Translations under genes and position numbers: made by a program | Origin: Ecytonucleospora hepatopenaei | Taxonomy: Eukaryota; Microsporidia; Enterocytozoonidae | Direction: 5' to 3' | Assembly (NCBI GenBank): GCA_026692725.1 | Contig: JAPMUG010000007.1 | Location: forward strand, 1-64,000 | Length of the DNA: 64,000 nt | Notes under the pieces: generated by a model | What the model saw: only the letters and a program-made list of their open reading frames with translations | Told to the model about the DNA's origin: nothing | Databases searched by the model: none | Shown here: positions 1,984-58,063 of the stretch, piece after piece | How positions within the stretch are numbered: position 1 is the first letter of the stretch | Layout: each line of letters opens with the position of its first letter

Positions 1984-2030
1984 GCTCCAAAACTTTAACT
2001 TCGTTACACTCCGTCAAGTTTTCTCGCGCT
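1981..2030. repeat. Imperfect inverted repeat at the inner edge of the satellite
   Basis: The 15 bases at 1981-1995 (AGCGCTCCAAAACTT) and 2016-2030 (AAGTTTTCTCGCGCT) are reverse complements at 12 of 15 positions and enclose a 20-base loop. The block is clearly richer in G and C than its surroundings and sits exactly where the 30-bp array breaks off inside a unit. Confidence 0.6.
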
Positions 2031-4342
2031 ACTAATCATAATCTAATTTTTGTTTTCACGTATTTTCTTTTCTTTGTGAATACTTTTATTACTCGCAAAA
2101 AGGTGTTAAAATGTTTTTTATGTACTATTAACTTAAATTAAACTTTTTGTAATTTTTTCGTTTGTTATTTCTATTGTTTTTATCATTTTATTATTAGGTT
2201 AATAAACTTATTAATAGTTTTATATTTTTTATATGTAAATATACTTAAGTATTAGTTTAGTTTTTTAATTTTTTTTTCTTTATTTCTTTTTTATTTAATA
2301 CTCTCATTGTTTTTCTTTTAAATTATATTATCTTTTAAAATATTTTTATTTTTTTATAAATTTTATAATATTTCCCTAATAAATGTATATATTTTTATAA
2401 TTTATTTAATAAAAACATATAAATATTTATTACACCATTTTATTATTACTATTACTACTATTTAAATACATATTAACTTTATCATTCATACTTATACTTA
2501 TATTCTATAAGAATATTTCTTTAATTTTTTCTAAATTTCTTAAAATATGAATTTATTTAATAATAAATTCTAAAATAATGTATTTTTTATTCTTATAATT
2601 TATTTACTATCATTTATATTAAGTTTTACACTTATAACAATACATTTAAATTATGATTTTACTATTATTTTATTTATATTTTAGTTTTATTCTATTTTAC
2701 TATAAGGGTTAAAAAATAAATACTAATAAGTTTACTAATATTTAAACTAAAGGGTATACTCACAAATACAAAAAATTGAAAAATACATCTACCTAAAACT
2801 ATTCAATTTTCAATATCATTGCATTCTATATATACTTTTATTTCATCTTTTTTCTTTTCCTTTATTACCTACGTGTTTTTTATTTCTATTATATTTTATT
2901 TTTCAAATTATTTTAACATAAAATATCTTTATACTACTAATATATAATATACACAAATAATTTAATTTATTATACAATTTATTTATAAAACATATAAAAT
3001 GTTTTTAGTAGTTAATATATAGTATAGTTGTGTATTCCTTAATAGTTTATAATAGTTAAGTAGTAATACTATTTTAAATTTGTTATTATTGTTAGCTACT
3101 ACTAAATTATATATATTAATATTTATTTTAGTTTATATTTATATTTAAATTAGTGTCTTAAGCTGGCTTATGCCATCGAAAATGTAGAGTAGATATTTAA
3201 AATTAGAAATGTTTTAAACCTTAATTTTTATTTTATTAAACTTTATTACAATGTGACATTCTTATACTAATACATTACCAAAGTGTATACTGATTATTTA
3301 GACACTCTTGAACAGAAAGAGGCACGTCGACAACAAGCACTTCAAGACCTTCCGCCTACTGTGTAAACAAAAGCGCTACGTAGCAATTCACAGCAAGAAA
3401 TTATTTAAATCAAATTCATGAAAGCTCAAAAGGAAGGGATTATAGCATATACTTATTTTTGTTCCTTAATTATACTATATAATAATAAAAATAGTTTTAT
3501 ATATTTGTTATTATTTTAAATTTTTACTTTTTATATTAACCTTATCCTTTTCTTATGTTATAAAATAAAATTAGTTTTTTACTTCTTTTAATATTATTAT
3601 ATATTATATATCTATATTTTTTAAAGAATTAAAATATTTTACTTTAGTTATATATAAAAATTATTGTTTTAAATTCTTAAAATTATTTTTATACCTATAA
3701 ATACTACTACTTCTTAATATAAATATTATATTTTGTTTTTCTTTTATTATATTGTTTAATAATATTAATAATATTTCCTTATAATATATAAATAGTAGTA
3801 GTATTTTTAATTTATTATTTTATAACTATTGTATAATATATTATTTTTGTTTTTAAAAGTTTTTAAATTTTTAAGGTTATATAATCTTATAATGATCTAG
3901 TTTAAAGTAAAATAATAAATATATATATGTTTTTTTGTATAGCTATAAATATTAAACTATTTTTATTTCCTTATATAAAAATATTTTATTTATTTTTATA
4001 CCTTACATTCTAAACATTATGATTTATTTTAAAAATATTAATTTTTTTAAATTTTTCCTTATTTTATTTACATAAATAATGTTTTTATATAAATCATATT
4101 TAATATATTCATAATACTACTATAATATATAATATTATTGTTAATTATATAATGTTATTGTTAATTATATAATGTTATATTTTTTTAATAATATTTTTTA
4201 TCCTTATAGTTATATAAAACTACAATACATTATAATAATATAATACAATAATATAACACAATATATAACTATATTTTATAACAAATTAACATATTATAAT
4301 AATACAATATATTTTAATACAATATAATAATATAATATTATA
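1984..4342. other. Gene-free AT-rich subtelomere
   Basis: About 2.3 kb of A/T-dominated sequence with frequent stops in all frames. I see no supported gene except a short coding-like fossil at 3274-3366. A slightly GC-richer patch continues to about 3420. Confidence 0.6.
3274..3366 (+). pseudogene. Short fossil coding fragment of unknown origin
   Basis: Between an in-frame TAA at 3268 and a TAA at 3364 the sequence reads about 30 codons with balanced codon use, including the string DTLEQKEARRQQALQDLPP, unlike the A/T-only background. There is no start codon. It looks like a relic of a gene or transposon; I do not recognise the family. Confidence 0.35.
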
Positions 4343-6308
4343 ATGATTGATAATATAGATGTATATATAAAGTATAATTTTATAGAAACAATAGAAATAT
4401 TACTATCAAATAATACTAATGATAGTGTATATGATTATAAGTTATATAAAGAAAATATATTAAATACTACTAATACATTATATAATGACAATAATACCAA
4501 TAATACTAATATCAATTATATAATATATTTATATTATACTAAACAATATAATAAAGCAATAAAATGTTTATCATGTATAAGCTTAACATGTTCAAATGAA
4601 ACATGTTGTAATATGGAAATGAAGATAATAAAAGCAAAGATAATACATAAGATATTATATGATAGTATAATAAAGAGTAATACTACTGATAGTAACACTA
4701 ATAGTAATACTACTAATACTACTAATATATTATATGATACAATATATAATAGTATACATAATGATTATAATGTAATATATAATAATAACTATAATATAAA
4801 ATATAATACTAATAATACTACTAATAATACTAATATATTATATAATTATATATATGGTATAATAATATTATATAATAACAATAACAATAACAATATATTA
4901 TATAATAATAACAATAATAATACTAATAACAATAACAATATATTATATAATAATAACAATAACAATATATTATGTAATAAATATAATATAGCTATAGATT
5001 GTTATATTAATATATTATATAAATATAATAATATGTATGAACTAATATATATAATAGTAGATATATTAAATATATATAATAATAGTGATAGTATTAATAA
5101 TATAATAAATGATGATATATTAAATGATGATATTAAATTATATATCTATATGTTGTATATATGTAATGATAGTAATATATTATATAATAATATAAAGATA
5201 TATGAATATATAATAAATACATATAATAGTATAAATGATACATATACATATAATAGTATAAATAATACATATACATATAATAGTATAAATAATACATATA
5301 CATATAATAGTAATATATTAAATAGTATATTATATATTATACCTATTGAATATTATATATTAAATATAGTAAATGATACAAGTATAACTAATGATATAAA
5401 ATATAATAAAATATTAAATATATATAATACATATACATATACATATAATACATATAATAGTAATATATATAATACATATACATATAATATTAGAATATCA
5501 TTAATAAATAGTATATTATATATGTATGATAATAAAATAGATGAATGTATAATATTATTAAAGAATATAATAAAATATAATAATATTGATAATATATCAT
5601 ATATTGATAATAGTAATATTATAATATATATAATATATATGATAATTAGTAAGTGTTATAATATAAAATATAATAAGCATAATAATATATCATATATGAA
5701 TAATAGTGTAATATATTATAATAAGGTATTATATAGTATATGTAATAATATACATATATCATAATATACATAATATACATAATATACATAATATAGTATT
5801 ATATATATTATATGATATAGCATATAACTTATATATACATAATAAATATAATATATCACAGTATATATTACATAAGATAATATATTATAATGGTAATATA
5901 TATAATGGTAATTGTTGTATTATTAGTAATACATATAAATTATTAGGTAGAATATATTATAAATATAATATATATGATATAGCAATAGAATCATTTATAA
6001 AGAGTAGTACAATATGTAATAATACCAATATATGTAATATATGTAATAATACCAATATATGTAATATATGTAATAATACTAATATATGTAATATATATAA
6101 TTTATATAATTTATATAATAGTAATATATGTAATAATACATCATGTGATGCATGGTTATATTTAGCTGAATTATATAAAAAGATGAATGACTCTAATAAT
6201 GCTATTGATGCATATAATAAATATATTAGTAATAGTACATGTGATAGGAATATAGAGAGAATAAAGAAATATATAGAAGATATAAATAAGTCAAATAGTA
6301 ATATATAA
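4343..6308 (+). CDS. TPR protein, Cdc23/APC8-like, interrupted by a frameshift
   Basis: The first reading frame runs 4343-5764 (473 codons). A second frame, one base out of phase, continues without stops to TAA at 6306-6308 and carries good TPR-like helices, such as LLGRIYYKYNIYDIAIESF and AWLYLAELYKKMNDSNNAI. Joined, the product would be about 655 aa. The N-terminal block around IIYLYYTKQYNKAIKCL and the C-terminal block ending KYI resemble the APC/C subunit Cdc23 (APC8), a TPR scaffold of the anaphase-promoting complex; assignment is by eye. Long Asn/Tyr/Ile tracts, including a 9-residue YNSINNTYT repeat, separate the TPR helices. The phase change falls in an (ATAC/ATA) microsatellite near 5750-5790, so a sequencing indel is as likely as a true lesion. 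Confidence 0.55.
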
Positions 6309-6360
6309 TATAATATAATATAAATAAAATATTACCCATATATATTAGTATAATATTTTA

Positions 6361-6497
6361 TATAGTTTATAGTTTATAGTTTATAGTTTATAGTTTATAG
6401 TTTATATATAGTTTATAGTTTATAGTTTATATTATAGTTTATAGTTTATAGTTTATAGTTTATAGTTATATATAGTTTATAGTTTATAGTTTATAGT
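6361..6497. repeat. 7-bp tandem repeat (AGTTTAT)n upstream of the NMT gene
   Basis: A slightly interrupted array of AGTTTAT units lies between a TTACCCAT element (CCC at 6335-6337) and the NMT start codon at 6565. It appears to have pushed the C-rich motif about 230 bp away from the ATG. Confidence 0.8.
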
Positions 6498-6564
6498 ATA
6501 TATAGTTATATATAATATATTAGTATAATAATATATTAGTATAATATAATAATATAATAATATA

Positions 6565-8063
6565 ATGAAAAAAAGATATTGGGAAACACAACCAGTTAGT
6601 AATATAGGTAATAACAATAATACTAATACCAATAACAATAATACCAATAACAATAATAATACTAATAATACTAATAATACTAATATCATACAACATGTTA
6701 ATAATGATATAATACACCAATTAAATAATACATATAATACATATAATAATACTAATTATATATTTAAATATATTAGTGATATTAATATTATTATTACATT
6801 TTTAAACAATAATTATTATAATACACATAATATACATAATACACATAATACTAATAGTAGTGATAATTATAAATTTATATTTACATATGATATGTTTAAT
6901 ATGTTATTTAATAGTAAGAGACATAAAGAATGTTATTCAATAGGATTATATATTAATAATAGTAATAATACTAATACTAATATATTATATAATGATAATA
7001 CAGTATATAATGATAATAAATTAGAATTAATTGGTTATGTATTTGGTAAAGTACATTCTATATATAATAATAGTAATAATAATGGTAATGTATTATATAA
7101 TGATACAGTATATAATGATAATATATTATATAGTGATATTCTCAGTGTTAACTTTCTATGTGTTAGTAAACATATGAGACATAATAATATTGCACCCATG
7201 CTCATTAATGAAATAAAGAGAAATGCATATATCAATGGTATTTATACTGCTATATTTACTGGTGAACGTAATTTAGGTTTTGCATTTACTGAAGTAGAAT
7301 ATTATCATTATATACTTAATATAAATAGATTAAGAAAATTAATATATATACCATATGATTATATAAATAGTACTAATACTATATATAATGATAATATATT
7401 AAATAGTAGTATATATAATAGTAATATATTAAATAGTAATATATTATAATAGTAATATATTATAATAGTAATACTAGATTAATCAATAATGATGATGATA
7501 ATGATTTTATTTATATTAATCAACTATTACTTAAATATAATCAATGTAATGTATGTAATATACAACTATATGAAGTATTTAATGATATTGATGCATTAAG
7601 AGATAATTTTAAAATTATTGATAACTTTAATTATACATTAATAAATAAACAGGAAGGTACATTTATTACATTTTATATAATGTATATTGATAATAAGTTA
7701 TATGATACTAATAATACTGATTTATATGATAATAACAATATAAACAGTAATAATAGTAATAATAGTAATAATACTATTTTATATGATAATAATAGTAAAT
7801 ATATTAAAAAAGCAATATTACAATATCATAATATAGGTAATAATACTAATAATACTAATAACATACAAATACTTGATGATGCTTTTACTTTTTGTAAATC
7901 CATGGGTGTTGATATGTTTGATGTCCTTAATATTGCTGGTAATGATATACACATTATAGATAAATATCCTTTTTTACATGGTACTGGTAAACTATATTAT
8001 CATTTTTATAATTATAATATGTTACCTATAGGAAGGAGTAAGATTAATTTTATATTATATTGA
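6565..8063 (+). CDS. NMT1: Glycylpeptide N-tetradecanoyltransferase (NMT), frameshifted
   Basis: Myristoyl-CoA:protein N-myristoyltransferase attaches myristate to N-terminal glycines in the cytosol. The N-terminus has the family signature WETQPV (residues 6-11). The acyl-CoA-binding region is clear: NFLCVSKHMRHNNIAPMLI followed by NEIKRNAYINGIYTAIFT. This frame stops at 7447-7449. A frame one base out continues from about 7443 through RLINNDDDNDFIYINQLLL, DAFTFCKSMGVDMFDVLN and a C-terminal FLHGTGKLYYHFYNYNM, matching the NMT C-terminal half, to TGA at 8061-8063. The joined product is about 498 aa, lengthened by Asn-rich inserts. The shift lies in an ATATTATAATAGTA repeat. Since NMT is normally essential, an assembly indel is likely. 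The usual C-terminal leucine carboxylate is replaced by Leu-Tyr. Confidence 0.9.
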
Positions 8064-8253
8064 ATTGTTACAACGATATTATATACTATATAATAAATAT
8101 TTTTTATATTATATACTGCATTATTATATTGTTATATTATTATATTGTTGTATAGTGTATTTTATAAGGTTAATATTTATTGATAAATTATTTATCTTTT
8201 TTACTTTATTAAATTATATAATATTTTTATTTAATATACCCTACTATATTTTA

Positions 8254-8310
8254 ATTAGTGTTAAAGTGTAATACGTTTTATTTAAATTAGTGTTAAAGTG
8301 TAATACGTTT
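8254..8310. repeat. 25-bp direct repeat, two copies
   Basis: Identical 25-base copies beginning ATTAGTGTTAAAGTG occur at 8254-8278 and 8286-8310 with a 7-bp spacer. Possibly a small duplication at a former insertion site. Confidence 0.8.
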
Positions 8311-8911
8311 ATTAATATACAGTTATTTATATATATACATATACTTTTGTTAATATTTATTTAAGTTTAAATAGTTAGTATTTTATATAGTTTAAACATA
8401 TTTATAGTATAAGATGACAAACAGTAACAGTAATGATGAATATGTTATTGATGATGTTGGTATATTATGACATCTTGATATATTTTAATACTTTTTACAC
8501 CCATAATGTTTTACCTAAATAAAGTTTTAACTACACTCATATTCAACAGCTAGTATAATATGGGTCTTATAACTATAAACCATATTTTTTATCCAAACAT
8601 AAGCATGTTTTGCATAAATAAAGTTTTAATACACTTACTTTCAAAATCTGTATTAAAAATTACATTTTCGTTTTTAAAGAAAAATATTTTATTTTTATTA
8701 AAATATTTAAAAAAATCTAGTATATTTATTTAAATTAAATTCTTTTTAATATATACAATAGTGTCAACAAAATAAAACTAACTAGTTAAAAAATAAGAAA
8801 AGATTTTAGAATAGTGTTTAATGATATTAAAAAATGTTTTTAAACTTCTACCACGATTTTATTTTTTCATAATTAAAAAATCGTTAATAAGATTAAAAAT
8901 TTTTTAAAAAA

Positions 8912-10594: not shown

Positions 10595-11755
10595 ATGAAT
10601 AACAAATTTATTTTTTTAATAATAACACTATTTTTAAAAATAATTTATTCAATAAGTGTAAGAATATCATCTGACAATGATGGTTATATAATTACAGGTA
10701 GTGTTCAAAGTGCCAGTCTATCACTCAAGCATTTAAATGTACAAAATGTTCCCATTCCACTCAGAACCAATCATCATGCCAATCCAGCAACAGGTAATTT
10801 TATGACAAGAGTGAACATGTTAAAATCATATGGTTTGTTTTCACGTAATTTTTTACCGTTTACACCTAGTTCACCATTGCTTATTACTTTTGATGACATA
10901 AATAGGCATAATTCACATGCAAATCCTAATCATAAATTTACAATAATGTTTGCGAATGATTATTCATTAGATATTTTAATATTTTATGATCCTTACAAAG
11001 TAGTTCATTCACATACAAGTCTTTTTGATTTTAATACACAAAATAAAACAATATTAAGAAGAGAATGTAAGGTTGAAGAAATTTTAGAAAAGTGTTTTGT
11101 AAGAACAAATAGAAATATAGGAACAGGAGTAACCCAAATAACTATACCAGTAACAACTAAAGAACTCAAATGTTTTGAAACAACAATGTTTTTAAATCAT
11201 TATGATTTCACAAAATCTTTCATAAAACACGAAAAAACAAAAACTGCAACAACCATGAGATTTAATGCACGGCGTAATTTACATTCAGCTTCACCGTCAA
11301 CTGTTTATGGTTCAAGAAGTAGTACGTGTAGTTATAAAAAACAACATGCAGTTAAAATTATACCAATACCACTTAAAAAAGAAGATATTATAAAAAAGCC
11401 ACCTATAAAACCAATAAGTCCTGGTTTATCCTCATTACTTAAAAAATTGACTTTAAATAAACAAAAAATTGCTCAAACAGAAGAACAAGAAGGTGCATCG
11501 GGTGGTAATGATGCTCCTCGTATAGGAGAGAAACCGAAATATAGTGGTAAAAAAAGCGAGAAGGATCCTTTAAATACACCCTTGCCTGAAAGTTCTAGTG
11601 ATGAAAATTTACAGTTGGAAACACCACAAATTGTTGATGCATCAACTGTACCATTACCTGAAAGTTCTAGTGATGAAAATTTACAAATGGAAAAACCACA
11701 AATTGTCGATCCTTCAACTGTATCATTGCCTGAAAGTAGTAGTGAAGAAGAATAA
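10595..11755 (+). CDS. Putative secreted protein with serine-acidic C-terminal repeats
   Basis: 386 aa. Residues 1-19 (MNNKFIFLIITLFLKIIYS) form a signal peptide. The middle is a soluble domain with few cysteines and no motif I recognise. From about residue 240 the chain is basic and Pro/Lys-rich. It ends with two near-identical 24-residue repeats starting PLPESSSDENLQ plus a third partial copy (SLPESSSEEE). The SSSDE/SSSEEE strings are classical acidophilic (casein-kinase-2 type) phosphorylation contexts. The combination of leader, repeats and subtelomeric position suggests a spore-wall, polar-tube or host-exposed protein, but that is inference. No CCC motif is seen close to this ATG. Confidence 0.7.
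   Translation: MNNKFIFLIITLFLKIIYSISVRISSDNDGYIITGSVQSASLSLKHLNVQNVPIPLRTNHHANPATGNFMTRVNMLKSYGLFSRNFLPFTPSSPLLITFDDINRHNSHANPNHKFTIMFANDYSLDILIFYDPYKVVHSHTSLFDFNTQNKTILRRECKVEEILEKCFVRTNRNIGTGVTQITIPVTTKELKCFETTMFLNHYDFTKSFIKHEKTKTATTMRFNARRNLHSASPSTVYGSRSSTCSYKKQHAVKIIPIPLKKEDIIKKPPIKPISPGLSSLLKKLTLNKQKIAQTEEQEGASGGNDAPRIGEKPKYSGKKSEKDPLNTPLPESSSDENLQLETPQIVDASTVPLPESSSDENLQMEKPQIVDPSTVSLPESSSEEE
11581..11747 (+). repeat. 72-bp tandem repeat inside a secreted-protein gene
   Basis: Two 72-bp copies and a partial third encode PLPESSSDENLQ(L/M)E(T/K)PQ and its continuation. The copies differ by a few substitutions, all keeping the reading frame. Confidence 0.85.
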
Positions 11756-12409
11756 AATGTTTTTTTCAAATATATTCAAATTTACTCATTTATAAATTAC
11801 TCATAAAAATTTAAAACAAACCTCATTTTATTTTTTATAAGAAACTGCCTTTAAAATAAAAATTTAAAAAAATACAAACTTTCATTCTGCATTTTTATTA
11901 CCATACACAAGCATTAGACAAAAACATATGAAATTTTATAGGGTTGAATTTTTGTAAAAAGATCATTTTTTTATACATTTAATATAAAATATAACAAAAC
12001 ATTAAAAGTATAAAATATTGATATAATAATTGTTTTTTAATATTAGCACAATTTTAAAATATTAATAAAAATGTATGAATAATATTGATTTAGTTAATTT
12101 TTTAATGTTTTAAAAATTTAATAATAAAATCACATTTCAAACAAATGTTTGTGTCAAAAAATGAAAGTCATTGATTTTGATAAATTCTTTAGTATTTGTG
12201 TTTAGTAACTTATAACTCTTCTTTTACATAATTTTTTTATTCATAAATAAAAAAATAACTATTTGTTTTTGATCAATTTTTTATTTAAAAATAAAATATA
12301 TATAAAACCATATATAGTATATAAGTTTATATAGTTTATATTGCTTATCTATTTTTATAATATATTAATTTAGTTTTTTAATAATAATTCTTTGGCACAT
12401 AATCATATA
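11756..12409. other. Intergenic region, nothing recognised
   Basis: AT-rich spacer of about 650 bp between two putative secreted-protein genes. No open frame with codon structure. Confidence 0.5.
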
Positions 12410-13396
12410 ATGTTTAAAACAATAATATACTTTCTTTTATATACTACAGAAATACTGAGTGTTGAAATAAAAACAACAGAAGATTTTGAGTTTTTTGAAG
12501 AATATACAATAAAGAATGTTACTGATTTGAATAAACAAGATTTGAAAGACAAAAAGAGTGGTTTTTATAAAATGATACAATCAATTGACAACGATAATAA
12601 TATAGAGGCATTTTCAGTGTTTGATTTTATGATTAATGAAGAAAAACATTCCTTCTTAGTAACTAAAGAGTTTAAATTGAAAAATAACAGTAAACTTAAA
12701 AATAAAGCAGGTTCTTATAAATATTGTACATTAAATAATGAAGAAGATGATTTTACTAATGATAATTTTTCTTTTACAAGTGAATCTGTAAAATATAAGG
12801 TTATGGATGATAAATATAATGAAAAATACAATTTATTTTTTGTTAGAAAAAGAAACGTACCTAAAGAAATAAACACCAAAAATGAATTTATTTATGATTA
12901 TTATTTTGATTATGGTATTATAAACAGTTCTGATTCTTCTGAAAACTCTACAGAAAAAAATAGAGTTTGTAATTCCGACGTAAAAATAATTAATCCTCTT
13001 TATAAGGCTTATGCAGATTCTCTTAATAATTTTAATATTTATAGGGAACATAATGTTTTTAAAGTAGGAAAACAAAATAAAAGTGATGTTGTTGTGGTAA
13101 ATGAAATAAATCTTAAAAAAGAGACAGGTTATGGTGGTTATAATAAAATTACTTATGATATGCGTAACAAGGGAGAAATGAGTAATCTTCGTGAATGTTA
13201 TGATACTAAACTTACAATGATAATTTTTATGGATTTTAAAAAATTTATCTCTTTTATAAATCAAAAAGATGACTCAGTAATAAAATTTAAAGTGAAATGT
13301 AAATTAGAAGCAAATGAGGGCAAAAAAATATATTTCTCAGATAGGTTTCAGAAAAACCTGGTAAATGATATTGAAGAAAATTTTAATAATTGCTAA
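12410..13396 (+). CDS. Putative secreted protein, single-module member of a local family
   Basis: 328 aa from the ATG at 12410; a TTG six codons earlier is in frame but unlikely in a eukaryote. The N-terminus MFKTIIYFLLYTTEILSVE is a probable signal peptide and no other membrane segment follows. It shares an ordered set of motifs with both halves of the next gene: FFEEYTIKN, then HSFLVTKEFKLKNNSKLKNK, then FMDFKKFISFINQKDD followed by VKCKLEAN. This defines a module of about 300 residues (see 14006-16154). Charged, Asn/Lys/Asp-rich; the chain ends in Cys. Function unknown; secretion and surface location are inferred. I did not match it to any described microsporidian family. Confidence 0.75.
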   Translation: MFKTIIYFLLYTTEILSVEIKTTEDFEFFEEYTIKNVTDLNKQDLKDKKSGFYKMIQSIDNDNNIEAFSVFDFMINEEKHSFLVTKEFKLKNNSKLKNKAGSYKYCTLNNEEDDFTNDNFSFTSESVKYKVMDDKYNEKYNLFFVRKRNVPKEINTKNEFIYDYYFDYGIINSSDSSENSTEKNRVCNSDVKIINPLYKAYADSLNNFNIYREHNVFKVGKQNKSDVVVVNEINLKKETGYGGYNKITYDMRNKGEMSNLRECYDTKLTMIIFMDFKKFISFINQKDDSVIKFKVKCKLEANEGKKIYFSDRFQKNLVNDIEENFNNC

Positions 13397-14005
13397 CAAG
13401 TTTTTACTAAATAAATGAATATAACAAATTATTTTAAATTAAAAAAATTTTTATAATTGTTATTGTTTTGTATAATTTTATAAAAATAAGAATTCAAATA
13501 AATTTATTTAGTATTTAAAATTAATTGATCCTGATAAATTAAATGCATTCTATAAATAAAATTGTACAAAAATACCCAAAATATAGAAATAATGTAATTT
13601 TTCAATAACTTCTAATAAAATGATATTATAATAAATATGTATAAAAATAAACTATTAGAAAAATAAATAAATATTTATTTGTTGTTTATATAATAAAAAT
13701 ACATTTAACAAAAGATTATCCATACCATGAGTGTATTTAAATATAGAACATACTAATTTTATACTATAATTTTTAAATAAAAATATAATTTAAGACTTAT
13801 AAAAAATAAGTTTTTGGATAAAATGATATATCAATTTTTTTGAAAAACTTAAAAAAAGAATTTATTAAAAACTATTTAAAACGTTAAAAAACCATCTTCA
13901 GCCAATTTTTTAAAAATATCAACTATTTGTTTTTTGATCAATTTTAAAATATTTTTTCCTTTAAACCCCATCTAAAAAAATATTTTATAAAACATATCGT
14001 ATTCA
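13397..14005. other. Intergenic region, nothing recognised
   Basis: About 600 bp of AT-rich spacer between two paralogous genes. No coding frame seen. Confidence 0.5.
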
Positions 14006-16154
14006 ATGATTTTTTATAATTGGTTACATTCGATACATTGTGATAATCTTTCTGCGAGTATAAATAACATACACAATGAAATATATGATGACAATATAAC
14101 TGTTATTGATAATTTAGAAGAAATTGATGATTTCAAAAACAATAATATTTTTGATAATGTTTATATAGATGACTGCTTTTTTTATGAACATTATGAAATT
14201 AAACAAATTCATAATAACAAAAATAAAACAGATTCTAAATATGTACAAGCAAAAAAAGATTCTATTGTAGATTTTTGTATGTTTAAATTGATGTTTAAAG
14301 AAAAAAAAGAAAAATTATTTTCAGTTACAAAAAAATTAACACTTTCTAATAAAACTGTTTTAAGGTATAAAAATAAAAAATATTTGGTCAAAAATTTAGA
14401 AGACTATAATTTTAATTTTGATAAAACTAATGATTCAAATAATGACAAGCAAAGTATTTATTATAAATCTTTATATGGAAGTGATACATTTTTTATAAAA
14501 CGAAATAAAGGGGATGATTTAAATGCAAAGAATATTAGTTATTCTAATAAAAGGAATTTTTTGAATAAGGTTAACGAATATTCCAAAAATATTTTTATTA
14601 ATAATAATTATAATGTTATTTCAAAAACTTCATTTGATACAATTTTAAAAGTAAAGCAATTAAAATTAGATTCTTTAAAAAAAAACTAATAAAAATAATA
14701 AAAATAAAAATATTTCATCAAGTAACATTGTAGTAAAAAGTATATTTAATAATAAAAATATTAAAAATATTAAAATAAGTGATTTATTAGATGATAAAAA
14801 GTATATGCGTGTGTTTTGTAACGAAAATGATTTTAAAAAATTAATTTTTGATGATGATAAAATAAATTTTACATCCAATGAAATAAATATAAAAGGTAAA
14901 AATATAAAAATAAGTTTGTTTAAGCAAAAATATAAAGCAATAAGTATAAAAAACAATGAATTGTTAATAAATAATCTTAAAAGTAATTTAAACAAGAATG
15001 TTGATGTTTATAATGAAAATGCATTGATAAGTAGGGCTTTGTTTTATGAATCTTATAATATTTATAAGTTAAAAAATAATAGTATTAGTAAAGAATTGGC
15101 AGATGAAATAAGAGGAAAAGATTTGTTTGAATTCTTTTTTATAACTTTAAATAATAATAAAGAAAATAATAAAAACTTTAAACAAAAATTTTTGGTAACT
15201 AAAGAATTTATTTTGAAAAAGAATACAAAAATATTTTATAAAAATAAAGAGTATACTTTACACAGACAAGGCATTCGTTTTATACCAAAAGAAAAATGCA
15301 CTTTTCAGTTAAATGGTAAAACAGATAATAACAATATAAAAACATATTTTGTTTTTAAAAATGATGTTAATGCTTTTATTAAGTTTAAAAATATTGAAGA
15401 ATTAGAATATTTTAACAGTAATTTGATTTTATTGGATTTAAATGCATATAAATTTGAAGTAAACCAGTGCAAAAAATCAGAAGAAAAAGAATTTTATTTT
15501 ATGCCTGATAAAAGCAAACATTTTGATCTTAAGAAAGTTTTTTTGGTTAATGACAAAAGTTTTAGTTTTAAAACAGGTAGTGTTATAAATGATCAAGAGA
15601 AAAATCAAATTAATTATAGAGATTATATGTTGATCAATATGGATTTAAATGAATTTTCTAAGTTTATTAATGATAAAGAAAGAGATAAAATGGCATATAA
15701 AACAGAAAATAAGTTTTTAGGAGTAGAGTGCAGTATAAAACTTAAAAGAAATGATCTAGAAGAAATAGTGGAGTTATATAAAAATATTCAAAGCAAATTA
15801 GATGATCAGCTAAATTATAAAGGTAGCATTTTAGATAAAAATAATAGTAATACTAAATTAAATAATAGTAAAATAAATGATGGTAATAGTAAATTAAATA
15901 ATAGCAATACTAAATTAAACAATAGCAATACTAAATTAAATAATAGCAATACTAAATTAAATAATAGCAATAGTAAATTAAACAGTGAAAATACAGAAGA
16001 AAGTGTTTCTGCTAATAAAAAAAGTACAGGTAAAAGCAAAAAAGTTATTTTATTTTTTATTTTACTGTCCGTTTCTGCAATTATATTTTTAGTTATTTTG
16101 GTTATATTATTACGTAAAGAATATAATAAAGGATTTATACAGCAGATTATCTAA
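14006..16154 (+). CDS. Two-module surface-type protein with C-terminal TM anchor, split at an A9 run
   Basis: The frame from ATG 14006 stops at 14687-14689 just after nine adenines (14677-14685). The frame reached by skipping one base is open from about 14679 to TAA at 16152. Joined, it encodes about 715 aa. Module 1 has FFYEHYEIKQ, LFSVTKKLTLSNKTVLRYKN and, across the junction, VFCNENDFKKLIFDDD. Module 2 has LFYESYNIYK, FLVTKEFILKKNTKIFYKNK and MDLNEFSKFINDKE followed by VECSIKL. The same order of motifs occurs once in the 12410-13396 gene. The intact second module and the junction falling between paired motifs argue for one gene. Near the C-terminus a 7-residue repeat (NSNTKLN) precedes a hydrophobic helix at about 680-700 (VILFFILLSVSAIIFLVILV) and a short basic tail. 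The N-terminus is only weakly hydrophobic, so a leader is uncertain. Confidence 0.7.
15836..15985 (+). repeat. 21-bp coding repeat (NSNTKLN)
   Basis: Repeated units of AATAGCAATACTAAATTAAA type, with some degenerate first copies, encode an Asn/Lys/Leu stalk just before the C-terminal membrane helix. Confidence 0.85.
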
Positions 16155-17270
16155 TTAAATTGGTATTTTTTAGAATATTTTATAATATATTAAATATTTT
16201 ATAATAGAAAAATATTTTATAATATATTAAACATTTTATAATATATTAATATTGTTGTAAATTAAAATATGGCAGAAAAAAATTGCTTTTAAGGTTATTT
16301 AAAAAAAGTTTTTAAAATGTTGTTATTTATTTTTTTCATAAATATGTAATATTGTTTTTGTTTAAAATACGTTTAAAAAAATCAAATATTTGTTTATAAT
16401 CATTTTAAAATTAAAAACTACAGGAGTGGAAAAGAAATAAAATAACATGCTTTAAATTTAACTATGCAACATAAATGTAATTTTATATCATGATATTTTT
16501 AATTTTATGACAATATACAGAGAAGTTAATAAGTTTGGTTAACTTTTGTAATAATGATAATACAGAAAAAAAGGAATGTTTTGTTAATTGCAAGTAATTT
16601 TAATGAAAATGATGTACAATAATTATTTTTTATGTAATTGTTGGTATTTAAAAAAATGAATTTAAAAATTATAAATGTTAATAAATATTGTTAATGAAAA
16701 TAAATTGTATAAAAAAGTACAACAATTTAATTTCTAGTTTTTTGTTTAAATATTTAGCCTAATTTTCAATATTTTTATAATTGTTTCTTAATTAAAAAAT
16801 TACTTCCTAAAGTAGAATGCATAAAAAGCGTTTTAATATTTAAAAAATTCGTTAAATGGTGTTACTTCAGATAATTTAAACATTTTAAGAACTTGTAGGT
16901 TATTTATTAATCAACACACGTTTAATTATACTTGTAAAATATTTAGTAAAAATATATAGGATAAATATAGTATTTCGTATTACACTAATGTTCAGTAAAA
17001 AAGAATTAATTCCGACCATTTGATTTGAATATAATTATACAGTTTTTGAAAATAAAGAAAGTTACTTTGTATTGATTCAATTTTAGCCTTGGTTTTGTTT
17101 AGTTATAAATCTTCAACATATTTAACAAAGAAAATTATAAAAGAAATATTTTAATAAAAAAAGATGCATTTCTTTTCTTTTAAAAAAGTAATTTTAAATT
17201 TATAGTGGTATTTCTTTTAATAATTTATAACGTAATAAATTTGTAGAAAAAATTGTTAAAAATGTTTCAT
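16155..17270. other. Intergenic region, nothing recognised
   Basis: 1.1 kb AT-rich spacer separating the putative surface-protein cluster from the core genes. No open frame with codon structure or RNA gene seen. Confidence 0.5.
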
Positions 17271-45545: not shown

Positions 45546-47069
45546 ATGGAAAATAATTTAAATAATAAAAATATTATAAATACAGAATATAATGAAATAA
45601 AAAACAATTTAAACATAGTAAAGAAAGAAACAGAAAATATCATATGTAATTCTTATACTAAACAAATTAATACTAAAAATACATATTCATTTGTAGTTGT
45701 GTCTATTCTTGGTTCTGGTTCATTTGGAATAGTATATAAAGTATTTGACAAATCAACACAAAAATATTATGCAATGAAAATACCAAAAAAATCAAAAACT
45801 AACAAAAACACAATCAACAACAGTATATTTAATAACAACAATAATATAAATAACATGAATAACATTAACACAAATACAAATGATATTGATATCAATTTCT
45901 ATAATAAAGCTAAATATTATTTAAATAATGAAATAAATGCATTACTTAACATTAAAAAACACAATAATATAATTAATATGATAGACTATGAATATGATTT
46001 ATATATATTAATGGAATGTTATGATATTACATTATTAAGTATATTTAAAAATAAAACTAATATATTTAAAAATAACATATTTAATAGCAATATTTCATTA
46101 AATAATGTATTTACTAAAAAATATATTAAGAGAAATATTGATAATATAGCAATAAGGTTACTTACTGCTCTGGAACATATTCATAAAAATAATTATGTGT
46201 ATAAAGATATGAAACCAGAGAATATATTGGTAGATAAAGGTAGATTGATTCTAATAGATTTTGGAGGGAGTGTAAAAGCAAATAATAAATATAAGACAGT
46301 TAATAATTATATTAAATCACATAATACAAATGTTACAATAAATAATTCAAATAAAATAAATAATGTTACAACAAACAATAATGTTACAAATGTAGATAAA
46401 AAAGAAAAAAGAACAGTTATAGGTACATTAAGGTATTGTTCAATAAATTGTCATAAAATGAGGGATATAACATATTTAGATGATATAGAGAATTTATTAT
46501 ATGTGTGTATATGGTTATATGAAGGTAGATTACCATGGGAGGATATAACATATAAAATAAACAGTAATACTAATATAAATTTAAATAACAGTAATATAAA
46601 CAATATAAATATATATAACAGTAATATAAACAATATAAACAATAACAGTAATATAAACAATATAAACAATATAAATAATACTAATAATCTTAAAAATACA
46701 AATGATAAAATTCTAGAACTAAAATTAAAGTATAGAAATGAAGTTCTAGAAACAAATTCAACCACCCTAACCAGTAATGTGTTTTTAGCTAAAATGTATA
46801 AATATATATGTATATCACAAGTAAAATATGATAATATATGTAAGGTATATTATAATATAAATAACACTAATACTTATATAAACAATATAAATACTAATAA
46901 TACTAATAATTATAATTATACTAATATAATTTATAATCCATCATTATATATTAAGCTTAAAAATATGAAATATATTGAAAAAGTAACATATCCTACAGTA
47001 AAGAAGAATATATTTAGTAGAATACTAGCATATATAAAAATAGGAATATCAAGTATATTATGTTGTTAA
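45546..47069 (+). CDS. Casein kinase 1 family kinase with C-terminal Cys-Cys
   Basis: 507 aa. Kinase motifs: glycine loop GSGSFGIVY (56-64), Lys78 in YAMKI, YKDMKPENIL (about 218-227; the CK1 catalytic loop), IDFGG (about 237-241; Gly follows DFG as in CK1-like DFGs), RTVIGTLRYCSINCHKM (CK1-type activation segment replacing APE), DDIENLLYVCIWLYEGRLPWEDI. Asn-rich inserts lie after the Lys, between helix C and the catalytic loop, in the activation segment and after PWEDI. The end, ILAYIKIGISSILCC, resembles the palmitoylated Cys-Cys tail of yeast Yck1/2, suggesting plasma-membrane attachment. Start as the first ATG; no nearby CCC motif. Confidence 0.85.
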   Translation: MENNLNNKNIINTEYNEIKNNLNIVKKETENIICNSYTKQINTKNTYSFVVVSILGSGSFGIVYKVFDKSTQKYYAMKIPKKSKTNKNTINNSIFNNNNNINNMNNINTNTNDIDINFYNKAKYYLNNEINALLNIKKHNNIINMIDYEYDLYILMECYDITLLSIFKNKTNIFKNNIFNSNISLNNVFTKKYIKRNIDNIAIRLLTALEHIHKNNYVYKDMKPENILVDKGRLILIDFGGSVKANNKYKTVNNYIKSHNTNVTINNSNKINNVTTNNNVTNVDKKEKRTVIGTLRYCSINCHKMRDITYLDDIENLLYVCIWLYEGRLPWEDITYKINSNTNINLNNSNINNINIYNSNINNINNNSNINNINNINNTNNLKNTNDKILELKLKYRNEVLETNSTTLTSNVFLAKMYKYICISQVKYDNICKVYYNINNTNTYINNINTNNTNNYNYTNIIYNPSLYIKLKNMKYIEKVTYPTVKKNIFSRILAYIKIGISSILCC

Positions 47070-47282
47070 TAAATAATACATTAATTATATAATAATAAAT
47101 AATTTATAATAATATTTATTTATAATATATTGATTATATTTTATTTATTTATAATATATTGTTTATATAATATTTGTTTATAATATATTGATTATATTTT
47201 ATTTATTTTTTGTATTAAATATATAAATATTGTTATATAAATAATATTATATAAATATATAAATATTGTTATATAATTAAAT

Positions 47283-48422
47283 ATGTATAATATTATATTT
47301 AATAATATTAATATAATTACTAATAAATATATTATTGATATAATAAATACAATATCTAATAATTTATTTAATATAAAACATAATGCTAATGATACTAATA
47401 ATTTAATATATAATATACTTTTTAATCTATTTAGTGATATTTGTATTAATATGAATGAATATATATATTATAATGTATTAAATAATATTAATATATTTAA
47501 AATATCATATATATTGTATAATACTAAGATATGTATAATATTAATAGATAAAGAAGTATATGTATATATAGAGGATACAATAGAAAAGATAAGGATAGAA
47601 AAGGAAATATTATTATGTAATATAAACAATAATACTAATATAAATTATAATACTGATATAAGTAATACTGATATAAATTATAATAATACTAAAATAAACA
47701 ATACTAATGATATAAGTAATAATTTTATATTTAATCTATTATGTAATATTCTTAATTTACAATATGATAAAATATCACTAATCAATTACAATTTAAAAAG
47801 ACTTAAAAATGAATTTAATTTAAAGCTAAGATCAAGAACACTAGAAAATAACCATAGCTATACCAAATATCTTAGTAAAATAGATAATTATTTAGATGAT
47901 ATAATAAATGTAGAACAGGAGATAATAGCAATAGAAAATTACATAACATATATAAGAAATAATACTAATAAATTATATAACAGTAATTTATATAATAGTA
48001 ATATTCATAATTTAAATAACACTAATAATTTAAATAATAGTAATAATTTATATAATAGTAATATAAATAATTTAAATAATACTATTTTATCTATTAAGTA
48101 TAATAAGTTAATTAGACTAATTAAATCTAGTAAAACATGTATGTTTAAGTTTAAATCCACCTATACGGAAAGTATGGATTTAAAGTTTGCTATTAAGCAG
48201 GATAAGGTTAATGACACCATTCAGAAAATAAGCTTAGTAACATTTCTATTCCTGCCCATACAGGCAATAAGTGGCATATTTGGCATGAATATAGCAGTAC
48301 CATTTGAGCATGAAAAGTCACTGAAGTATTTCTATGGCCTAATACTGATAACACCAATATGTTACATAGGATATTATATAGGGTATAAGGTATATAGAAT
48401 ATTACAAAATAAAATATATTAA
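47283..48422 (+). CDS. CorA/Mrs2/Alr-type magnesium transporter
   Basis: 379 aa. The C-terminus has two membrane helices with the defining GMN signature: KISLVTFLFLPIQAISGIFGMN (GMN at about 333-335), then YFYGLILITPICYIGYYIGY. Before it lies the long coiled stalk (about 175-300: LRSRTLENNHSY, LDDIINVEQEIIAIENYITY) split by an Asn/Leu-rich insert (about 225-265). The N-terminal alpha/beta domain is degenerate. CorA channels are homopentamers conducting Mg2+. The GC-richer codons around 48150-48380 mark the constrained core. Confidence 0.9.
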   Translation: MYNIIFNNINIITNKYIIDIINTISNNLFNIKHNANDTNNLIYNILFNLFSDICINMNEYIYYNVLNNINIFKISYILYNTKICIILIDKEVYVYIEDTIEKIRIEKEILLCNINNNTNINYNTDISNTDINYNNTKINNTNDISNNFIFNLLCNILNLQYDKISLINYNLKRLKNEFNLKLRSRTLENNHSYTKYLSKIDNYLDDIINVEQEIIAIENYITYIRNNTNKLYNSNLYNSNIHNLNNTNNLNNSNNLYNSNINNLNNTILSIKYNKLIRLIKSSKTCMFKFKSTYTESMDLKFAIKQDKVNDTIQKISLVTFLFLPIQAISGIFGMNIAVPFEHEKSLKYFYGLILITPICYIGYYIGYKVYRILQNKIY

Positions 48423-48661
48423 TATAAATAAAATATATAAATAAAATAAATTATATTTAATATACTATATATTTAAATATATTAATAATAAAATAATAAA
48501 TTATATTTAATATACTATATATTTAAATAATAAAATAAATTATATTAATATATTTACTATTTATTATTGTTTTATATTATTTATATTATTTTATAATAAA
48601 TATATTATTATATAATATACTATAATATACTATAATATACTATAATATACTATAATTTAAT

Positions 48662-49714
48662 ATGTCTAATATATATGATATTAATGAATCACTTAATAAT
48701 TATGTTAATAATAGTGCTAATATAGGCATAATAAAATCATTTTATGATAATTTAAAAATTAAAAATATAAATGAATATAGTAATATATATAATAAGAAAG
48801 TATTTAAGATAATAAGTATAATACTAATGATAATATTATTAATACCAAATAAATATAAACATAAATTAAAAAATATTAATATTAATACTAATAATTTATA
48901 TAACAATAATTTATATAATACTAATACTAATAATACTAATAACAATATATCAAATAATAACAATATATGTAATAATATTTTAAATAATTATTATGTTTAT
49001 ATAATACAAAATATATTATGTACTATTATACCATATCTACTGATATTCACTGATCAGCTACTGATGCTAATATACAGTAGAGAGAATATTAAGTTAATGG
49101 TGATAACACTACTAACATTATTATGTATATTTATGATACACTATTATAAGATAACAAATATAATACAGTCATTTGGAACAGGATTTATAAGGCATTCAAT
49201 ATTTTACAGTATAAACAGTAATACAAATATAAATAATATAAACAGTAATACAAATATAAATAATATAAACAGTAATACATATAATAACACAAACAGTAAA
49301 ACAAATAATACAAATAATAAGTATAATATTTCTGATATGTTTTTAGATTATGTTTATAGTACTAAACATAGATCATATAAAATATATATTATATACATTA
49401 CCATATCTATATTTATATATGTCATATCCAATAGATACAATAACATCAGCAACATAATAAAGAAGGGTGAGCTGGTAACATATCTAATAGTAAACATAAT
49501 ACTATTACAGTATAAAATAAATAGAATAAAATACATAATGATATTGGTGATGGTGTATATCATATTATTGGGTAATATAATATATAATAGAATAAAAGAA
49601 TATATACATAAAGATAATAGAGTGATATATACTGATAAAACATATGATAGTAATACTACTAATATATTATATACTGATACTAATAGTTGTAAAAAAAGAA
49701 TATTAGAAATATAA
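48662..49714 (+). CDS. Multi-pass membrane protein, unknown (island protein A)
   Basis: 350 aa with about 7 hydrophobic segments (VFKIISIILMIILLIP, IIPYLLIFTDQLLMLIY, LMVITLLTLLCIFMIHYY, IYIIYITISIFIYVISN, ELVTYLIVNIILL, IMILVMVYIILLGNIIY), separated by Asn/Thr/Tyr low complexity. An 11-bp ACTATAATATA repeat precedes the ATG. The conserved-looking stretch TNIIQSFGTGFIRHSIFY between helices could be functional, but I do not recognise the family. Confidence 0.65.
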   Translation: MSNIYDINESLNNYVNNSANIGIIKSFYDNLKIKNINEYSNIYNKKVFKIISIILMIILLIPNKYKHKLKNININTNNLYNNNLYNTNTNNTNNNISNNNNICNNILNNYYVYIIQNILCTIIPYLLIFTDQLLMLIYSRENIKLMVITLLTLLCIFMIHYYKITNIIQSFGTGFIRHSIFYSINSNTNINNINSNTNINNINSNTYNNTNSKTNNTNNKYNISDMFLDYVYSTKHRSYKIYIIYITISIFIYVISNRYNNISNIIKKGELVTYLIVNIILLQYKINRIKYIMILVMVYIILLGNIIYNRIKEYIHKDNRVIYTDKTYDSNTTNILYTDTNSCKKRILEI

Positions 49715-49934
49715 TAGTATAATACTATATTATATATTATATTTATATTATATTTTATTTATATTTTATTTATATTTTATTTATATTTTATTTATATATT
49801 ATATTTTATTTTATATATTTATATTTATTTGATATATTACTTATATAAATAAAATATTATAATATAAAAATACAATTATTATAAAATACAATATTATTAT
49901 AATATATAAAAATATAAAATACAATCATTATAAT

Positions 49935-50717
49935 ATGATAATACTGTTTAAAATACTATTCTATTCTTTAATTATACTCTCTGTATATTACTCCAACCTA
50001 TGCTCTTCTTCTATTTTTATTGCTGATTATATCATATGTGAAATACTATTGTATTATGGCAAGTATATACCAATATTAGGTATATTTATATCACTATCAA
50101 TAACATTACTGATATATATGCTAAATAACAATGTTATCAATATAATATATTATACTATACTATCCAGTATCATATCCATGCATGTATTTGTTAATATCAT
50201 ATATGTAAATAACATAGGCATACAGATAGAATTGATGGTATATGCATTTATATACATGATGTTTATATGTGATAAGAATAGAAGAGTGTCACTAATACAT
50301 GTGATATATGATACATTTTTAATATCACTGATAATAATTAATATATACAATTATATAGTATTAAATATATCATATATATCAAATATATCAAATATATCAT
50401 ATGATAATGATACTAATAATACAAATAGTAATGATATTAAATATATTAATTATTATAATAAATATAGTATATATAGTAAAACATATAATTATATTAGTAT
50501 ATATTATAATATAGATATAATAATAATATTGATATGTATGATAATAGCAATAATAAAGGAATATTTATATAGAGAGGTAAAGAATAGGAAATATACATAT
50601 GATAATACTAATATAATATATAATAATACTAATATAATATATTATAATAATGCTAATAATACTAATAATATTATAAATAGTAATGAAGAATATGATTATA
50701 ATATATTACAATTATAA
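49935..50717 (+). CDS. Multi-pass membrane protein, unknown (island protein B)
   Basis: 260 aa, about 6 hydrophobic segments starting with a leader-like helix (MIILFKILFYSLIILSVYYS). Others include YIPILGIFISLSITLLIYML, IIYYTILSSIISMHVFVNII and IDIIIILICMIIAIIKEY. The C-terminal 60 residues are Asn/Tyr low complexity. Could be part of the same system as the preceding membrane protein (same strand, 220 bp apart), but there is no diagnostic motif. Confidence 0.6.
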   Translation: MIILFKILFYSLIILSVYYSNLCSSSIFIADYIICEILLYYGKYIPILGIFISLSITLLIYMLNNNVINIIYYTILSSIISMHVFVNIIYVNNIGIQIELMVYAFIYMMFICDKNRRVSLIHVIYDTFLISLIIINIYNYIVLNISYISNISNISYDNDTNNTNSNDIKYINYYNKYSIYSKTYNYISIYYNIDIIIILICMIIAIIKEYLYREVKNRKYTYDNTNIIYNNTNIIYYNNANNTNNIINSNEEYDYNILQL

Positions 50718-50897
50718 TATAATACTAATATAATATATCAGTTATTTAAAAAATATTATATAATATATATCAGTTATTTATTTATAATATAAAATATCAG
50801 TTATTTATTTATTTAATATAATATAATATAATATAAAATATTAGTATTATAATATATCAGTTATTTAAATAATATATATCAGTTATTTATTTATTTT

Positions 50898-52631: not shown

Positions 52632-52988
52632 AATATAAATAGTATATTAAACAATATTTTACAAATATAAGGGTTATTAAAAATTAATAATTAACATAAT
52701 AATATTTAGTATTATATATTTATATAATATATAGTAGTATAAAATAAAATAATATTACATAAACATATATTATAATACTACTATATAATATATAATACTA
52801 TCTTATATTATTTACATATAAAATATTTTACCCTTTTTTTATTTAACCCTTTAAAAAAGTATAATATATAAATATACAATATATAAATATATAATAAATA
52901 GAGTATAATTATAAATAAAAACTATAATTATAAATATACAATATATAAATATACAATAAATAGAGTATAATTATAAATATATTATATA
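52632..52988. other. Divergent intergenic region with C-rich motifs for both genes
   Basis: ATAAGGGTTAT near 52668-52676 is a CCC motif for the minus-strand gene. TTACCCTTT (CCC 52831-52833) and TTAACCCTTT (52847-52849) face the plus-strand gene but lie about 140 bp before its ATG, separated by AT microsatellite. Confidence 0.5.
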
Positions 52989-55397: not shown

Positions 55398-55543
55398 ATA
55401 TATTTTATATTTTATATTTTTAACCCTATAATAGAAAATATATATAAATATATAATATATAAATATATAATATAATATAAATATATATTGAATATATAAA
55501 TATAAAGTATAATATAATATAATATATAATATAATATATTATT

Positions 55544-56656: not shown

Positions 56657-56735
56657 TATATAATACTATATATATAAATATATATAAATAAAGTATAATT
56701 TATTTATTTATTTATTTTTTTAACCCTAACAAAGG

Positions 56736-56870
56736 ATATTGTAATAATATATTGTAATAATATAAAAGATATTATAATAATATAAAAGATATTGTAATAA
56801 TATAAAAGATATTGTAATAATATAATTCAATATAATAATATAAAAGATATTGTAATAATATATTATAATA
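56736..56870. repeat. 20-bp tandem repeat upstream of the EB1 gene
   Basis: Units of GATATTGTAATAATATAAAA with small variants fill the space between a TTAACCCTAA element (CCC 56724-56726) and the ATG at 56878. Confidence 0.75.
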
Positions 56871-56877
56871 ATTACAT

Positions 56878-57921: not shown

Positions 57922-58063
57922 TATGATATATATTAATATACAATATATTTATATTAATATACTAATATTGTTTTATATTGTTTATATATTGTTTTATATT
58001 TTATATAATTATATTTATAAGTTATATTTATATATTGTTTTATATAATATACAATATATTTAT

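What the first reader, a model, noticed from the sequence alone, without database searches (positions are those of the whole stretch)
12410..16154. Apparently undescribed module family in a subtelomeric surface-protein cluster
An ordered set of motifs (F[FY]E.Y.I, then [FL][LS]VTK[EK]..LK..[TS]K..YKNK, then a D..[EK]F..FI block and a VxCxxKL strand) occurs once in the 12.4 kb gene and twice in tandem in the 14.0-16.2 kb gene. The two-module copy adds an NSNTKLN stalk and a membrane anchor. One secreted single-module protein next to an anchored double-module one looks like a receptor/ligand or adhesin pair grown by internal duplication.
Basis: partly seen in the sequence, partly recalled or inferred. 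Interest (0 to 1): 0.8.

Follow-up and report, generated by a model that had tools for sequence, protein, structure and literature searches.

The report
Modular protein family of shrimp parasite
A shrimp-infecting microsporidian carries six related genes, so far found in no other organism searched, that look like surface or secreted proteins built from one repeated module, and each is preceded by the same short DNA element, which probably switches them on together.

Summary
The module family is real. The window lies on contig C11 of an Ecytonucleospora (Enterocytozoon) hepatopenaei (EHP) assembly. Six genes carry nine modules of about 260-320 aa: two genes in the window, a tandem pair on C7, two on C12. 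Every module, when held out, is found by a profile of the other eight at 40-124 bits; shuffles reach at most 2. Modules are of two types. The N-terminal A type, which includes the 12.4 kb gene, is a strong clade; the A/B split is older than the spread over chromosomes. No Pfam match above cut-off, no usable PDB match and no non-EHP relative was found.

Corrections: the 14.0-16.2 kb gene is two frames here (public record EHP00_1596 is intact); the other members are not subtelomeric; VxCxxKL is not one shared column.

New: all six genes have a similar ~40 bp element 84-181 bp before the ATG (69% identity inside, chance level beside it; 0 of 93 other sampled ORFs have it). This suggests a co-regulated set of type I surface proteins plus one secreted member. 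Two frame breaks lie at long poly-A tracts, so slippage is conceivable, unproven. A receptor/ligand pair is not shown. Structure models failed (pLDDT 37 and 33).

The parts
12242..12290 (+). Family upstream element of the 12.4 kb gene (core 12257-12275), about 150 bp before the ATG
   Evidence: nhmmer model of six upstream stretches, E 7.7e-7 (training member); found at E 0.0017 when held out
12410..13396 (+). W1: 328 aa, hydrophobic N-terminus, one A-type module, no membrane anchor: probably secreted
   Evidence: listed as P0002
12464..13393 (+). A-type module of W1
   Evidence: held-out profile score 91.8 bits; clade with N-terminal modules of C7a and C12a, support 98/98
13903..13963 (+). 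Family upstream element of the 14 kb gene (core 13921-13940), about 84 bp before the ATG
   Evidence: E 1e-9 (training member); held-out E 1.9e-6
14006..14689 (+). W2 piece a: 227 aa, start and first part of module 1; the frame then closes beside a poly-A tract
   Evidence: intact in EHP00_1596 = P0004
14679..16154 (+). W2 piece b (open frame; first ATG 14805): rest of module 1, module 2, stalk, anchor
14997..15794 (+). B-type module (module 2 of W2)
   Evidence: held-out 93.6 bits; 107.5 bits with a profile from outside the window
15838..15988 (+). NSNTKLN-type stalk, 21 bp repeat
   Evidence: Tandem Repeats Finder 15839-15982, 7.1 copies
16029..16127 (+). Transmembrane segment
   Evidence: Kyte-Doolittle 19-residue windows over 1.6; member of the tail profile
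16373..16413 (+). Seventh, weaker and orphan copy of the upstream element; no family gene or detectable remnant follows before the next gene
   Evidence: E 0.0081 with the full model, 0.0026-0.51 in the six hold-out runs; no module or tail remnant at E under 0.05 in 16413-17270

Best explanation
The two genes belong to a six-gene, apparently EHP-restricted family of host-exposed proteins that are switched on together. An ancestral gene probably encoded signal peptide + module A + module B + flexible Asn/Asp/Ser/Lys-rich stalk + C-terminal transmembrane helix. Copies spread to three chromosomes and now differ: A+B (C7a, C12a), B alone with anchor (C7b, C12b), two modules with anchor (W2), A alone and soluble (W1). 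Each keeps an ~40 bp element upstream, presumably a transcription factor site, so they are expressed as one set. The anchored members would hold their modules out on stalks from the parasite surface, with W1 released, to bind host or parasite partners. Shown here: homology, module types, hydropathy architecture, the element. Inferred: the A+B ancestor, surface topology, co-expression, binding function.
For: Family: seven queries covering all six genes hit nothing outside these six genes; 9 of 9 modules are recovered when held out. Architecture: hydrophobic N-terminus in 5 of 6; TM segment in frame in 4 of 6 (in W2 within piece b), in another frame behind a poly-A tract in C12a (E 2.3e-4, fifth of 2,997 frames after the four training tails), none behind W1. 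History: A clade 98/98; AU tests. Element: before 6 of 6 genes, 84-181 bp upstream, same orientation; pairwise identity 0.69 inside against 0.40 and 0.41 on the two sides and 0.40 by chance; each copy is found when held out, E 1.9e-6 to 0.0017 in 173 kb; 0 of 93 other ORFs carry it within 400 bp at E<0.1.
Against: No expression, localisation or binding data. The start of W2 is barely hydrophobic (0.78, within the control range). None of the 15 abundant spore-surface proteins in Table 2 of PMC8874471 fits a family member in length and pI (nearest lengths 326, 374 and 592 aa differ clearly in pI; the other 115 of 130 proteins were not visible). EHP00_1530 is identical in both sequence sets, EHP00_1596 is identical on both sides of the break, and C12b differs by two residues, which does not suggest fast antigenic change. 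Whole 300 bp upstream comparisons are mixed: in 4 of 15 pairs 14 to 68 of 300 shuffles reach the score. Only 5.6% of the genome, not a random sample, was examined for the element, so its family specificity is provisional. Two of six genes look broken, which could mean decay.
Confidence: 0.6

Rival explanations
1. Structural proteins of the spore wall or polar tube rather than host-contact proteins of the growing stage.
For: EHP spore-surface proteins include uncharacterised TM proteins, some without relatives (Table 2 of PMC8874471); the family is N/K-rich and probably secreted.
Against: None of the 15 listed high-abundance proteins fits a family member; few cysteines; no Pfam match above cut-off.
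Confidence: 0.17
2. Membrane proteins of internal parasite compartments (ER, Golgi, vesicles), not exposed to the host.
For: Signal sequence and C-terminal anchor alone do not tell the destination.
Against: Lineage restriction and divergence (24-38% identity in the longer paralogue alignments) are typical of host-exposed families (PMC5423893, passages); one member is soluble.
Confidence: 0.13
3. A decaying family: redundant genes losing frames and anchors.
For: Frame breaks in W2 and C12a at long poly-A tracts; an orphan element behind W2 with no gene.
Against: The rest of each frame is intact, the public W2 record is open, and the element is conserved in all six.
Confidence: 0.07
4. One reading: soluble W1 binds anchored W2.
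For: Tandem neighbours with the same upstream element; A and B modules are fused in C7a and C12a, a hint that A and B types may work together.
Against: No interaction evidence; no free A gene in the ~10 kb read around the C7 and C12a genes; the type of W2 module 1 is unresolved.
Confidence: 0.03

Closest known systems
Microsporidian large host-exposed gene families, e.g. NemLGF3/NemLGF4 of Nematocida parisii (C-terminal TM) and NemLGF1/5 (signal peptide) (PMC5423893; passages seen)
   Same: Lineage-restricted paralogues with signal peptide or C-terminal TM, mostly without known function, partly adjacent; the TM families there are not enriched at chromosome ends, as here.
   Different: Six members, below that paper's cut-off of 10; no sequence comparison with those families was made beyond the protein searches; the two-module build and a shared upstream element are not in the passages seen.
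EHP spore wall proteins EhSWP1, EhSWP7, EhSWP3 (PMC5848443 passages; PMC8874471 passages and tables)
   Same: EHP surface proteins; EhSWP3 also lacks detected relatives and has a C-terminal TM.
   Different: EhSWP1 belongs to the SWP12 clade, some members of which have a BAR2 domain; the family here has no Pfam match above cut-off and other lengths.
Microsporidian transcription signals: CCC-like, GGG-like and AAATTT-like motifs (PMC2803860, abstract and passages seen)
   Same: Short upstream DNA signals in a compact genome, one of them characteristic of a gene family (ribosomal proteins).
   Different: Those lie close to the start codon and are widespread; this element is ~40 bp, 84-181 bp upstream, and in the 173 kb examined it stands before this family only (plus one orphan copy).

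Membership tests
Microsporidian 'large gene family' as defined in PMC5423893 | at least 10 homologous members in one species | tested here: not met
Microsporidian 'large gene family' as defined in PMC5423893 | enriched in signal peptides or TM domains | tested here: met
   hydrophobic N-terminus 5 of 6; TM tail in frame 4 of 6 and in a second frame in a fifth; by hydropathy, not SignalP/TMHMM
Microsporidian 'large gene family' as defined in PMC5423893 | clade- or species-specific | tested here: inconclusive
   4 proteins in 3 searches of 5.8 billion: two named EHP, one the window's own, one unnamed but identical to C12b bar two residues; the search needs shared 5-residue words and scored 7,992, 4,106 and 6,238 candidates
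Any Pfam domain family (ricin B lectin, LRR, DUF1609, BAR and others) | match above the curated cut-off | tested here: not met
   no family member above any cut-off; only weak matches, best E 0.013
Any fold with a solved structure | sequence or fold match | tested here: inconclusive
   no PDB match with the module profile, one isolated weak hit with P0001 (9m0t, E 0.01); models too poor to search (pLDDT 37.1 and 33.4)
Phase-variable (contingency) loci | switching by tract length within a population | not testable with these tools
   two sequence sets differ in frame at W2; no reads available

The most novel reading that the evidence does not exclude
A dedicated surface-protein regulon in a microsporidian: one upstream element turns on a dispersed set of six stalked proteins, and slippage at long poly-A tracts inside them (at DNA or RNA level) makes individual members switch between whole and truncated, or anchored and secreted, forms. 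In C12a the tract sits between ectodomain and stalk plus anchor, and the frame behind it still encodes a clean stalk and TM tail.
Probability: 0.1. Interest if true: 0.8.

Novelty: new member of a known kind. Interest (0 to 1): 0.47.

Why it matters
EHP is an economically important shrimp parasite with few characterised surface proteins. A small, nameable family (EHP00_1530, EHP00_1596 and the 328, 327, 370 and 760 aa proteins) gives concrete candidates for host contact and diagnostics. The shared element differs from the start-codon-proximal motifs in the one paper on microsporidian signals that I saw (PMC2803860, passages), and it makes co-regulation directly testable with RNA-seq.

Tried and rejected
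Pfam scans of all family members: nothing above cut-off. PDB by sequence: nothing usable. AlphaFold2 of EHP00_1530 with four sequences (pLDDT 37.1) and of W2 module 2 with four sequences (33.4): too poor, so no fold search was run. Database searches outside EHP: none found.

Enrichment of long coding poly-A tracts: first looked strong (5 sense runs of 8 or more in 7 family ORF pieces against 1 in 71 other ORFs); with 48 kb more control DNA it weakened (5 in 7 against 6 in 106 ORFs; Fisher 0.014 for runs of 8+ against runs of 7; 0.001 by ORF, 4 of 7 against 6 of 106; runs of 9: 2 against 0). Runs of 9 or more are not rare genome-wide (89 + 82 overlapping matches); in four control stretches 40 of 41 A/T runs of 8 or more lay outside ORFs of 100 aa. 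So this is kept as a lead, not as a result. A hydrophobic stretch behind W1 in another frame was considered as a lost anchor and rejected: the tail profile finds nothing there. The 14-base core of the upstream motif with 2 mismatches is not clearly above chance in the window (18 against a mean of 12.2; 9 of 100 shuffles reach it); only the longer element is specific, and the strict pattern was written after seeing the sites. Spore-surface Table 2: no fitting entry. Diversifying selection was not tested: no orthologues in another species.

Full report
What the sequence is. Contig C11 (174,190 bp) of a 3.09 Mb, 13-contig assembly; a family member on C12 is identical to EHP00_1530 of Ecytonucleospora hepatopenaei, so the organism is EHP. 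The window opens with a (AACT)n telomere-like repeat (1-1546) and 14.7 perfect 30-mers.

The observation. The 12.4 kb gene (W1) codes for 328 aa. The '14.0-16.2 kb gene' (W2) is two frames here, 14006-14689 and 14679-16154, which meet beside a poly-A tract; the public record EHP00_1596 (715 aa) is open and identical on both sides (226 of 227 residues of piece a, 491 of 491 of piece b's open frame). Seven queries (W1; W2 as two pieces; C12a, C7b module, C12b, C7a modules) hit nothing outside six genes, though no single query hits all six: W1 and W2 on C11 at 12-16 kb; C7a (760 aa) and C7b (327 aa) in tandem at 129-133 kb of C7 (345 kb); C12a (597 aa) at 110 kb and C12b (370 aa) at 79 kb of C12 (170 kb) (ORFs). 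Only the window pair is near a contig end. The block near-identical at four chromosome ends stops near 8455 and weaker matches to other ends stop near 11.5 kb.

Homology of the modules. Nine modules: W1; W2-1, W2-2; C7a-A, C7a-B; C7b; C12a-A, C12a-B; C12b. W2-1 was taken from the public record. Held-out profile scores in that order: 91.8, 40.3, 93.6, 61.3, 124.4, 102.6, 81.9, 112.3, 63.6 bits; best of 500 shuffles of each module at most 2.0. With a profile from the six modules outside the window: W1 66.3, W2-1 41.3, W2-2 107.5 bits; best shuffles -3.7, -15.9, -8.1. Direct BLASTP of W1 with the W2 pieces alone gives E 0.028-0.072 at best. Recurrent features: F.E.Y.[ILV] at the start, an F[LIYS][VIL][TK][KR][EK] stretch with a following LK/N..T-type turn, and a hydrophobic strand followed by [DEN]F..[FKL] near the end. 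The VxCxxKL motif of the finding is not a shared column.

Module history. Tree of nine modules: W1 with C7a-A and C12a-A, support 98/98; five of six inner branches are weak and branches are long. AU tests: grouping by locus is rejected for C7 (p 5e-12) and for C12a-A with C12a-B (p 4e-4), as is W1 with W2-2 (p 0.002); W2-1 with W2-2 is not rejected (p 0.29), W1 with W2-1 is borderline (p 0.053), and W2-1's side is unsettled (57/74). So the A/B duplication came before the spread; W1 is a free A module.

Architecture. N-terminal hydrophobicity (best 10-residue Kyte-Doolittle mean in the first 25): 1.82-2.69 in five genes, 0.78 in W2; of 19 other window ORFs that I picked, 3 exceed 2.8 and 16 are at or below 1.29. 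In-frame TM tails: W2 (piece b), C7a, C7b, C12b. C12a ends, here and in the public record, just behind a poly-A tract; another frame that opens there codes for a lysine-rich stalk and a TM tail that matches the tail profile at E 2.3e-4, fifth of 2,997 frames after the four training tails (next 0.017). W1 has no such tail behind it.

The upstream element. A DNA search showed that the stretch before W1 (12228-12389) resembles the stretch before C12a (71%). Comparing 300 bp before each ATG showed a stretch around AATATCAACTATTNGTTTTT(N)NATCATTTTTTAAAT, starting at -152 (W1), -84 (W2), -158 (C7a), -160 (C7b), -157 (C12a) and -181 (C12b) counted at ACTATT, always in gene orientation; C7b's copy is the most divergent in the core. 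Over the full 300 bp the pairwise comparisons are mixed: in 11 of 15 pairs at most 9 of 300 shuffles reach the score, in 4 pairs 14 to 68 do. In register, mean pairwise identity is 0.69 inside and 0.40 and 0.41 on the two sides, chance 0.40. A strict pattern, written after seeing the sites, hits 5 distinct places in the ~125 kb then held, all before family genes (a sixth listed hit is the W1 place again in locus L036); eight simulated sequences of that size gave 1, 0, 0, 0, 0, 0, 0, 0. Held-out nhmmer runs over 173 kb find each missing copy at E 1.9e-6 to 0.0017, each time ahead of every non-family place. 0 of 93 non-family ORFs of 100 aa or more with a start have it within 400 bp at E<0.1 (the family's 6 of 6 is by construction, the hold-outs are the test; some ORFs near stretch ends have less than 400 bp). 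A seventh, weaker copy stands at 16373-16413 with no gene after it. Described microsporidian signals (CCC/GGG/AAATTT; PMC2803860 passages) sit near the start codon and are general. In 2 of 6 copies (W2, C7b) the element holds ATCAA...TTGAT half-sites, as for a dimeric factor; this is inference.

Mechanism. Best reading: co-expressed, stalked type I surface proteins plus one secreted member. Steps shown: family, module types, hydropathy architecture, element. Steps inferred: ancestor, surface exposure, co-expression, binding. The nearest described kind is the microsporidian host-exposed gene family (PMC5423893, passages), whose size criterion (10 or more) is not met.

Poly-A tracts. Both breaks (W2, C12a) coincide with the only two sense runs of nine A in the sampled ORFs of 100 aa or more. 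Runs of eight or more are commoner in the family than elsewhere, but the signal shrank as the control grew. Sequencing error, fixed mutation, slippage in RNA and phase variation all remain open.

Limits. No relative outside EHP was found with a word-based search; distant ones may exist. Both structure models were unusable.

Noticed in passing
window 1984-8455: Block shared with the ends of C7, C9 and C12 (stretches 1984-4100 and 8060-8455 tested: 98-100% identical), with 86-89% versions of its outer ~1.1 kb at many other ends.
   Followed up: partly
window 6565-8063: N-myristoyltransferase-like gene pieces (parts of NMT and NMT_C in different frames) inside very AT-rich, Asn-rich sequence; the same NMT piece was found at four chromosome ends (C7, C9, C11, C12), with no other match in that search.
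   Followed up: partly
window 10595-11755: Secreted-looking 386 aa protein with C-terminal 24-residue PLPESSSDENLQ-type repeats; relatives at 52% identity near the ends of C7 (326.7 kb) and C8 (16.6 kb), in 1308-codon open frames.
   Followed up: partly
G000:C5 ~211-224 kb and ~422-430 kb: Subtelomere-type blocks inside the 811 kb contig C5, at ~217 and ~223 kb in opposite orientations, as if chromosomes were joined end to end in the assembly.
   Followed up: no
window 2001-64000: A/T runs drop abruptly in number between length 7 (116) and 8 (2) in an AT-rich sequence; three of four 8 kb control stretches (those with few ORFs) do not show so sharp a drop.
   Followed up: partly
window 46000-58000: Second AT-rich island (GC 13-19%) with low-complexity, AT-repeat-rich ORFs, some with kinase, CorA and EB1 matches.
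   Followed up: no
L013:3138-4250: A second sequence set (P0003) differs from C12b only by two residues in the stalk.
   Followed up: yes
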